Shown: one piece after another, positions 20,880 to 20,945 of the stretch
Layout of the letters: every line of letters begins with the position of its first letter
Position numbering within the stretch: position 1 is the first letter of the stretch
Assembly: GCA_030710605.1 (NCBI GenBank)
Contig: CP092863.1
Span: 119,520,412 to 119,584,411, forward strand
DNA from: Cordylochernes scorpioides
Taxonomy: Eukaryota; Arthropoda; Arachnida; Pseudoscorpiones; Chernetidae
Direction of reading: 5' to 3'
Length of the DNA stretch: 64,000 bases
Made by a program: the position numbers and the translations under genes
The notes under the pieces: generated by a model
Seen by the model: the letters and a program-made list of their open reading frames with translations, nothing else
Told to the model about the DNA's origin: nothing
Database searches by the model: none

Positions 20880-20945
20880 AGCGGTCTAGAGATTAATTTG
20901 GCGAAACCGCTGAGAGGGTTCACTACTGATGAGCCAAGCCCTCTC
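20880..20945 (+). ncRNA. Permuted hammerhead-like block, F1 copy 3
   Basis: Every hammerhead core position is present. Stem III 20880-20885 pairs with 20906-20911 and is followed by C17 at 20886. Stem I strand 20887-20892 pairs with 20920-20925 (one A-A mismatch). CTGATGA is 20926-20932. Stem II GCCAA 20933-20937 pairs with TTGGC 20898-20902. GAA is 20903-20905, with the closing A at 20906. The strands are in the order III5', I5', II3', GAAA, III3', I3', CUGAUGA, II5', unlike a normal hammerhead. A further 7-bp stem (GAGAGGG 20912-20918 with CCCTCTC 20939-20945) encloses the CTGATGA loop. TATATAA lies at 20848-20854, about 30 bp upstream. Activity is not shown. Confidence 0.6.

What the first reader, a model, noticed from the sequence alone, without database searches (positions are those of the whole stretch)
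20880..20945. Complete hammerhead core in a permuted strand order (F1)
The sequence shows GUC, CUGAUGA, GAAA, G10.1-C11.1 and three adjacent stems (6, 5-6 and 5 bp) with exact hammerhead spacing. However, the strands run III5', I5', II3', GAAA, III3', I3', CUGAUGA, II5'. All three pairings cross each other, so the RNA is two neighbouring hairpins (stem III and an extra 7-bp stem) whose loops together hold the catalytic core. The 5-nt link between the stem I and stem II tips is sterically plausible because those stems lie side by side in hammerheads. The join from stem III to the second hairpin looks tight in cis. Cleavage might therefore need a dimer, or tandem units: I5' and I3' of one unit plus II3'/GAAA of the next restore the normal order. 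I know of no hammerhead class with this order.
Basis: partly seen in the sequence, partly recalled or inferred. Interest (0 to 1): 0.92.

Follow-up and report, generated by a model that had tools for sequence, protein, structure and literature searches.

The report
Permuted hammerhead ribozyme in retroelements
A self-cutting RNA motif (hammerhead) whose three core strands are shuffled out of the usual order sits in jumping-gene repeats of this genome; hammerheads with this shuffled order were described in 2023 from environmental RNA only, so the find gives that odd ribozyme a genomic home.

Summary
At 20880-20945 (+) the three hammerhead core strands occur in the order site - GAAA - CUGAUGA, with stems III, I, II and a fourth helix. 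Its authors report no SGC member from the genome of a known organism.

New here: the motif lies in a 379-nt tandem unit of a retro-inserted element with an 18-nt target duplication. A second element in the window (F2, 372-nt unit) keeps the ribozyme at 59 of 65 positions and the rest at 183 of 334. One block variant (F3) has 20,801 exact matches in this 2.6-Gb genome. A Penelope-like element with GIY-YIG endonuclease and reverse transcriptase carries a fully diverged SGC hammerhead (445 pattern matches), copies 5.3 kb apart flanking its frame. Across four types all four helices show two-sided pair changes.

Best reading: type-SGC hammerheads serve Penelope-like elements and retrozyme-like satellites, cutting multimeric transcripts after GUC or GUA. 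Cleavage was not tested. F1's own stem I is weak.

The parts
20880..20892 (+). F1 block S: stem III 3' strand AGCGGU (20880-20885), C17 (20886), predicted cut 20886/20887, stem I 5' strand
   Evidence: sequence; descriptor
20897..20911 (+). F1 block G: stem II 3' strand UUUGGC, GAAA (20903-20906), stem III 5' strand ACCGCU (20906-20911)
   Evidence: sequence
20912..20918 (+). Helix IV (joins stems I and II), 5' arm GAGAGGG
   Evidence: two-sided pair changes
20919..20938 (+). F1 block C: stem I 3' strand UUCACUA, CUGAUGA (20926-20932), stem II 5' strand GCCAAG
   Evidence: sequence
20939..20945 (+). Helix IV, 3' arm CCCUCUC
20117..20182 (-). Inverted identical copy of the F1 ribozyme
20496..20560 (-). 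Inverted F1 copy lacking one base in stem II 3' strand (probably inactive)
19983..21042 (.). F1 element: inverted arm (to about 20565) and direct arm (from 20564), unit 379 nt
19971..19988 (+). Target-site duplication of F1, left copy (18 nt)
   Evidence: L001
21040..21057 (+). Target-site duplication of F1, right copy (18 nt)
   Evidence: L001
20775..20786 (+). 12-nt arm of a long-range stem, complementary to 20593-20604 and 20972-20983; pairing kept in F2 (63460-63471 with 63293-63304) though the letters differ
63576..63642 (+). F2 ribozyme: III3' 63576-63581, C17 63582, stem I 63583-63589 with 63616-63622, GAAA 63600-63603, CUGAUGA 63623-63629, II5' 63630-63634, helix IV 63609-63615 with 63636-63642
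63184..63770 (.). F2 element, inverted arm 63184-63246 and direct arm 63245-63770, unit 372 nt; 15-nt target duplication at 63171-63185 and 63761-63775
   Evidence: L031

Best explanation
A non-circularly permuted (type-SGC) hammerhead ribozyme carried by a short non-coding tandem retroelement (retrozyme-like, 371-379 nt per unit) that Penelope-like elements (PLEs) probably mobilise in trans. Fold (inferred): stem III and helix IV form as neighbouring hairpins; their loops pair with each other as stems I and II and build the standard catalytic core; the RNA cuts after GUC (F1, F2) or GUA (F3, PLE type). Multimeric transcripts are cut into units, which may be closed into circles (inferred from known retrozymes). 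Insertion: reverse transcription starts inside the unit at two sites about 35 nt apart, one per DNA strand, and can run over unit boundaries, leaving an inverted pair of arms between target duplications (anatomy shown; mechanism inferred from PLE biochemistry, PMC11167929). A PLE in the same genome carries its own diverged SGC hammerhead in copies 5.3 kb apart that flank its open frame.
For: Complete core and stems. Ribozyme 57-61 of 65 positions identical between F1, F2, F3, rest of unit 161-188 of 322-334. Two-sided pair changes in helices I, II and IV among 14 rows and in all four helices once the PLE type is added. In 91 loci (297,823 nt, overlapping loci not removed) the descriptor gives 167 SGC and 7 type-I-order hits, none in the other four orders. 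F3 block: 20,801 exact matches, reversed-pattern control 0; PLE type: 445, control 0. PLE frame: GIY-YIG, reverse transcriptase piece. Target duplications and two fixed end clusters as in PLEs. Architecture matches validated SGC ribozymes.
Against: No cleavage data. F1 stem I is 3 bp plus mismatch plus 2 bp; F3 stem I has an A-C mismatch. The energy model prefers local pairs that compete with stems I and II (it cannot model the pseudoknot). 0 of 90 arm 5' ends lie within 1 nt of the cut, so insertion does not visibly use cut linear RNA. No direct proof that this PLE moves the small elements; only one PLE locus was read in sequence.
Confidence: 0.8

Rival explanations
1. The active form is a tandem or dimer form: block G of one unit with blocks S and C of the next gives a normal nested order (GSC, type II) with a stem III loop of several hundred nt.
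For: Units occur in tandem; cyclic order G-S-C is restored across units (sequence).
Against: In the PLE the blocks of the next unit are 5.3 kb away; helix IV and the short I/II segment, conserved with two-sided changes, make sense in the local fold; published SGC RNAs cleave as single units.
Confidence: 0.06
2. The structure is conserved for another role (protein binding, template recognition, packaging) and no longer cleaves, or cleaves only with a protein.
For: The Anolis PLE hammerhead needs the PLE protein to cleave and is dispensable for insertion in vitro; no arm ends at the cut.
Against: All core letters (CUGANGA, GAAA, N-U-H site) are kept in four types whose stems differ, including changes of the site itself within the allowed set (GUC, GUA).
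Confidence: 0.11
3. Chance likeness without function.
Against: Diverged copies with two-sided pair changes and a fully diverged copy beside a coding PLE.
Confidence: 0.03

Closest known systems
Type-SGC hammerhead ribozyme (HRIMA-1 motif and type-SGC variants), Eckert et al. 2023, PMC10085705
   Same: Block order site-GAAA-CUGANGA, stems I-III, helix joining I and II, short segment between I and II, 0-1 nt between stem III and that helix.
   Different: Published members come from metatranscriptomes with no known host; here in chromosomes, in retroelements, at high copy number. Sequences could not be compared (supplement not readable here).
Animal non-LTR retrozymes, Cervera and de la Pena 2020, PMC7229834 (part 2 of 6 and passages seen)
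   Same: Short non-coding low-GC tandem units of about 170-400 nt with a hammerhead, target duplications over 4 bp, spread in the genome.
   Different: Described ones carry type-I hammerheads; these carry type SGC. Circular RNA was not tested here.
Penelope-like elements with hammerheads, e.g. Anolis PLE, Frangieh et al. 2024, PMC11167929 (parts 1-2 of 4 read)
   Same: GIY-YIG plus reverse transcriptase, hammerhead in repeats flanking the frame, end positions 30-40 nt apart, priming on both strands, AT-rich targets.
   Different: Reported PLE hammerheads are minimal type I; here type SGC. The endonuclease is N-terminal to the reverse transcriptase, as I recall for the Naiad/Chlamys group (Craig et al. 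2021, not held).

Membership tests
Type-SGC hammerhead | Block order site-GAAA-CUGANGA | tested here: met
   F1, F2, F3, PLE type
Type-SGC hammerhead | Conserved core CUGANGA, GAAA, N-U-H site, G10.1-C11.1, A15.1-U16.1 | tested here: met
   Met in all four types
Type-SGC hammerhead | Stems I, II, III | tested here: met
   F1 stem I imperfect (3 bp, mismatch, 2 bp), F3 stem I with one mismatch
Type-SGC hammerhead | Helix joining stems I and II; linker between them typically 3 nt | tested here: met
   7-bp helix IV in all four types, two-sided changes at pairs 1, 2, 3, 7; linker 3 nt in the PLE type, 4-5 nt in F1-F3 depending on where stem I ends
Type-SGC hammerhead | Self-cleavage at the predicted site | not testable with these tools
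   Needs a bench assay
Animal retrozyme | Non-coding tandem unit of a few hundred nt with a hammerhead and target duplications | tested here: met
   Units 379, 372, 371 nt; target duplications
Animal retrozyme | Type-I hammerhead | tested here: not met
   SGC order instead; no type-I order found in the window
Animal retrozyme | Circular RNA of unit length in tissue | not testable with these tools
   No RNA data
Penelope-like element (L091/L092) | GIY-YIG endonuclease and reverse transcriptase in one frame | tested here: met
   GIY-YIG residues 34-114, 27.6 bits over cut-off 22.6; RVT_1 E=2.7e-5 but 24.4 bits, under the cut-off 29.6; pieces searched apart
Penelope-like element (L091/L092) | Reverse transcriptase falls in the PLE clade | not tested
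   No tree built; telomerase matches E 0.4-0.5, not significant
PLE-type insertion (small elements) | Two end positions 30-40 nt apart and inverted arms | tested here: met
   End clusters at unit positions about 90-100 and 118-129 (F2), 95-109 and 129-145 (F1), with a few outliers; 50 of 60 loci show both orientations, my count from the list (overlapping loci not removed)

The most novel reading that the evidence does not exclude
Type SGC is the resident ribozyme of one lineage of Penelope-like retrotransposons (with the endonuclease N-terminal) and of the retrozymes that live off it; the orphan SGC ribozymes of metatranscriptomes are at least partly transcripts or circles of such retroelements, and PLE lineages have acquired hammerheads with different block orders (type I and SGC) separately.
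Probability: 0.35. Interest if true: 0.85.

Novelty: new variant of a known kind. Interest (0 to 1): 0.72.

Why it matters
Hammerheads are the natural RNAs for which non-circular permutations have been shown, and the SGC form had no known organism. Here it has a chromosome-level genome, carriers, a protein-coding partner and tens of thousands of copies with which to study its folding and evolution. It adds a new hammerhead topology to retrozymes and Penelope-like elements, described in animals with type I, and since type-I-order hammerheads occur in the same genome, the origin of permuted ribozymes becomes testable.

Tried and rejected
Rfam 15: no ribozyme match in the window at gathering score (two tRNAs only) or for either element at E<=10. 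Whole-genome search for the Rfam type-I hammerhead (RF00163): no hit, but 74 of 285,298 candidates were scored and no control rang, so it says nothing; 7 type-I-order hits were then seen in flanks of fetched loci (their stem III is very short and its descriptor count is inflated by overlap). Exact-pattern scans of viral contigs and genome contigs: 0 matches. Alignment A4 misplaced block S of the PLE type and was not used; one search aligns by hammerhead numbering. Linear cut RNA as insertion template: 0 of 90 arm 5' ends within 1 nt of the cut, ends inside the ribozyme 10 of 38 (F1; 7.4 expected) and 10 of 52 (F2; 10.5 expected) (a few ends at unit position 1 are artefacts of where the query starts). 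Target duplications: 43 of 60 loci have an exact repeat of 12 nt or more near the borders (overlapping loci not removed); some of these are simple repeats (L036, L040, L044, L053) or lie off the borders (L020, L022, L060); random-pair controls are inflated in many loci by the elements' own repeats (up to 66 nt). Pair counts: 14 rows picked from 71 distinct variants; shuffles reach three two-sided pairs in 126 of 500 and the number of pair types in 486 of 500; sliding partners by +1 gives a covariation score of 0.110 against 0.115 (with 53.6% against 90.8% of cells paired). Exact counts of full F1, F2, F3 ribozymes could not be had. The host could not be named.

Full report
What is there. Positions 20880-20945 (+) hold the three hammerhead strands in the order site block (AGCGGUC-UAG), GAAA block (UUUGGC-GAAA-CCGCU), CUGAUGA block (CUA-CUGAUGA-GCCAAG), the last inside a 7-bp extra stem GAGAGGG/CCCUCUC. 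Stem III has 6 bp, stem II 6 bp, stem I 3 bp plus a mismatch plus 2 bp. An order-blind descriptor finds in the window this motif, its inverted copy and a second one, F2, at 63576-63642, and nothing else; all are in the same order. Random windows give 0.018 hits in this order and 0.174 in any order. Local folding predicts stem III and the extra stem as hairpins and other pairs in their loops; the method cannot show the pseudoknot.

The elements. F1 is part of a 379-nt unit in inverted and direct arms between 19983 and 21042, flanked by an 18-nt target duplication. F2 is a second insertion, 63184-63770, unit 372 nt, 15-nt duplication. In a three-way alignment the ribozyme columns are identical at 59 of 65 (F1-F2), 57 of 65 (F1-F3), 61 of 65 (F2-F3), the rest of the unit at 183 of 334, 161 of 328, 188 of 322. 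A 12-nt long-range stem keeps its pairing though its letters change between F1 and F2.

The genome. The window lies in a 2.62-Gb genome of 24 contigs, a eukaryote and probably an animal (a Mos1-type transposase helix-turn-helix and ankyrin-repeat frames in the window; inference). F1 and F2 units gave 849 and 764 candidate places, 40 scored in each case. A third subfamily, F3 (371-nt unit, site GUA), was seen in flanks and then searched: its GAAA-CUGAUGA block pattern has 20,801 exact matches, the reversed control 0. In L001-L090 (overlapping loci not removed) 205 sites have the right GAAA-CUGANGA spacing; 170 of them also keep a site block A[AG]CGGU[ACU] at the right distance, 35 do not (truncated, shifted or mutated). 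In 91 loci the descriptor gives 167 SGC hits, 7 in type-I order and none in the other four orders.

The coding partner. A GIY-YIG search listed 146 matches, 150 of 17,015 candidates having been scored. One inverted pair with open frames of 828 and 483 codons was fetched in part (L091, then L092). Both arms hold an SGC hammerhead with other stem sequences: III GGCAGU/ACUGCU, site GUA, I AUGGAG/CUUCAU, 3-nt linker, II GGGCC/GGCCC, helix IV CUCAGGU/ACCUGAG. Its pattern has 445 exact matches, control 0. At this element they start at C1:8983833(-), 8989122(-), 8989865(+), 8995124(+), that is 5,289 and 5,259 nt apart on a strand, with GIY-YIG 988 and 958 nt downstream; on C2, 100478294(+) and 100483559(+) are 5,265 nt apart with a GIY-YIG match 963 nt downstream of the first. 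The frame has GIY-YIG at residues 34-114 and, further on, RVT_1 at E=2.7e-5, under Pfam's cut-off, with a YVDD motif. Only this locus was read in sequence; the other matches are known by position, and 13 also by their matched letters.

Covariation. In 14 rows picked from F1, F2, F3 and variants 90.8% of cells pair and one pair each in helices I, II and IV changes on both sides; no shuffle of 500 reaches the pairing, the two-sided cells or the covariation score, but 126 reach three such pairs, and the +1 slide has nearly the same score (0.110 against 0.115). With the PLE type, in a four-row comparison by hammerhead numbering, two-sided changes occur at III pair 3; I pairs 1, 2, 4, 5 (and 6 between F1 and the PLE type); II pairs 2, 4, 5; IV pairs 1, 2, 3, 7. 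Unpaired cells: I-4 in F1, I-5 in F3, I-7 in F1 and PLE, II-6 in F2, F3 and PLE.

Insertion anatomy. 50 of 60 loci show both an inverted and a direct arm (my count). Outer ends fall mostly near unit positions 90-100 and 118-129 (F2) or 95-109 and 129-145 (F1); 43 of 60 loci have an exact border repeat of 12 nt or more, some of them simple repeats or off the border. This is like PLEs, whose reverse transcription starts at two adjacent internal sites on either DNA strand, the stretch between them being the 30-40-bp 'tail' (PMC11167929, parts 1-2 of 4). None of 90 arm 5' ends lies within 1 nt of the cut, so the templates were multimers or circles rather than cut linear units; in the Anolis PLE the hammerhead is dispensable for insertion in vitro and cleaves only with the protein present.

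Comparison. The order is type SGC of Eckert et al. 2023 (PMC10085705, parts 1-6 of 8): 583 predicted members, five candidates cleaving in vitro, all four helices of one of them shown to be needed, a linker of typically three nucleotides, and a puzzle over members whose stem III and extra helix join directly, as in F1-F3. [quoted passage not shown] Animal retrozymes are described with type-I hammerheads, and PLEs with minimal type I (PMC7229834, part 2 of 6 and passages). Paper searches (listings seen) showed no report of SGC hammerheads in genomes or retroelements; only open-licence papers are held, so this is not proof.

Verdict. Real; not a new ribozyme topology, but a new home and new carriers for one that had none. 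Shown: sequence, order, conservation, covariation, copy numbers of patterns, insertion anatomy, one coding PLE with the same topology. Inferred: the fold, cleavage, circle formation, and mobilisation of the small elements by PLEs.

Noticed in passing
window 39000-43650: Another array of about 360-nt repeats in direct and inverted copies (spacings 343-362, 510-515, 870), also with an AGATGGCAA motif; no hammerhead found there by the descriptor.
   Followed up: partly
L017, L018, L019, L030, L032, L048 (flanks): Seven hammerhead cores in type-I order with a very short stem III, like the minimal PLE hammerheads, in the same genome.
   Followed up: no
window 47848-48381 (+): Frame with the helix-turn-helix of a Mos1-type (mariner) transposase.
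   Followed up: no
window 21919-23451 (-) and 44602-45405 (-): Open frames of ankyrin repeats, 510 and 267 aa.
   Followed up: no
window 18114-18986 (+): Frame with an RNase H match, probably of a retroelement.
   Followed up: no
window 31840-31940 and 46360-46460 (-): Two near-identical 100-nt stretches elsewhere in the window that share 26 nt with the F1 unit at positions 101-126, the region of its outer ends.
   Followed up: partly
window 51752-52346: Tandem array of a 32-nt unit, about 19 copies.
   Followed up: no
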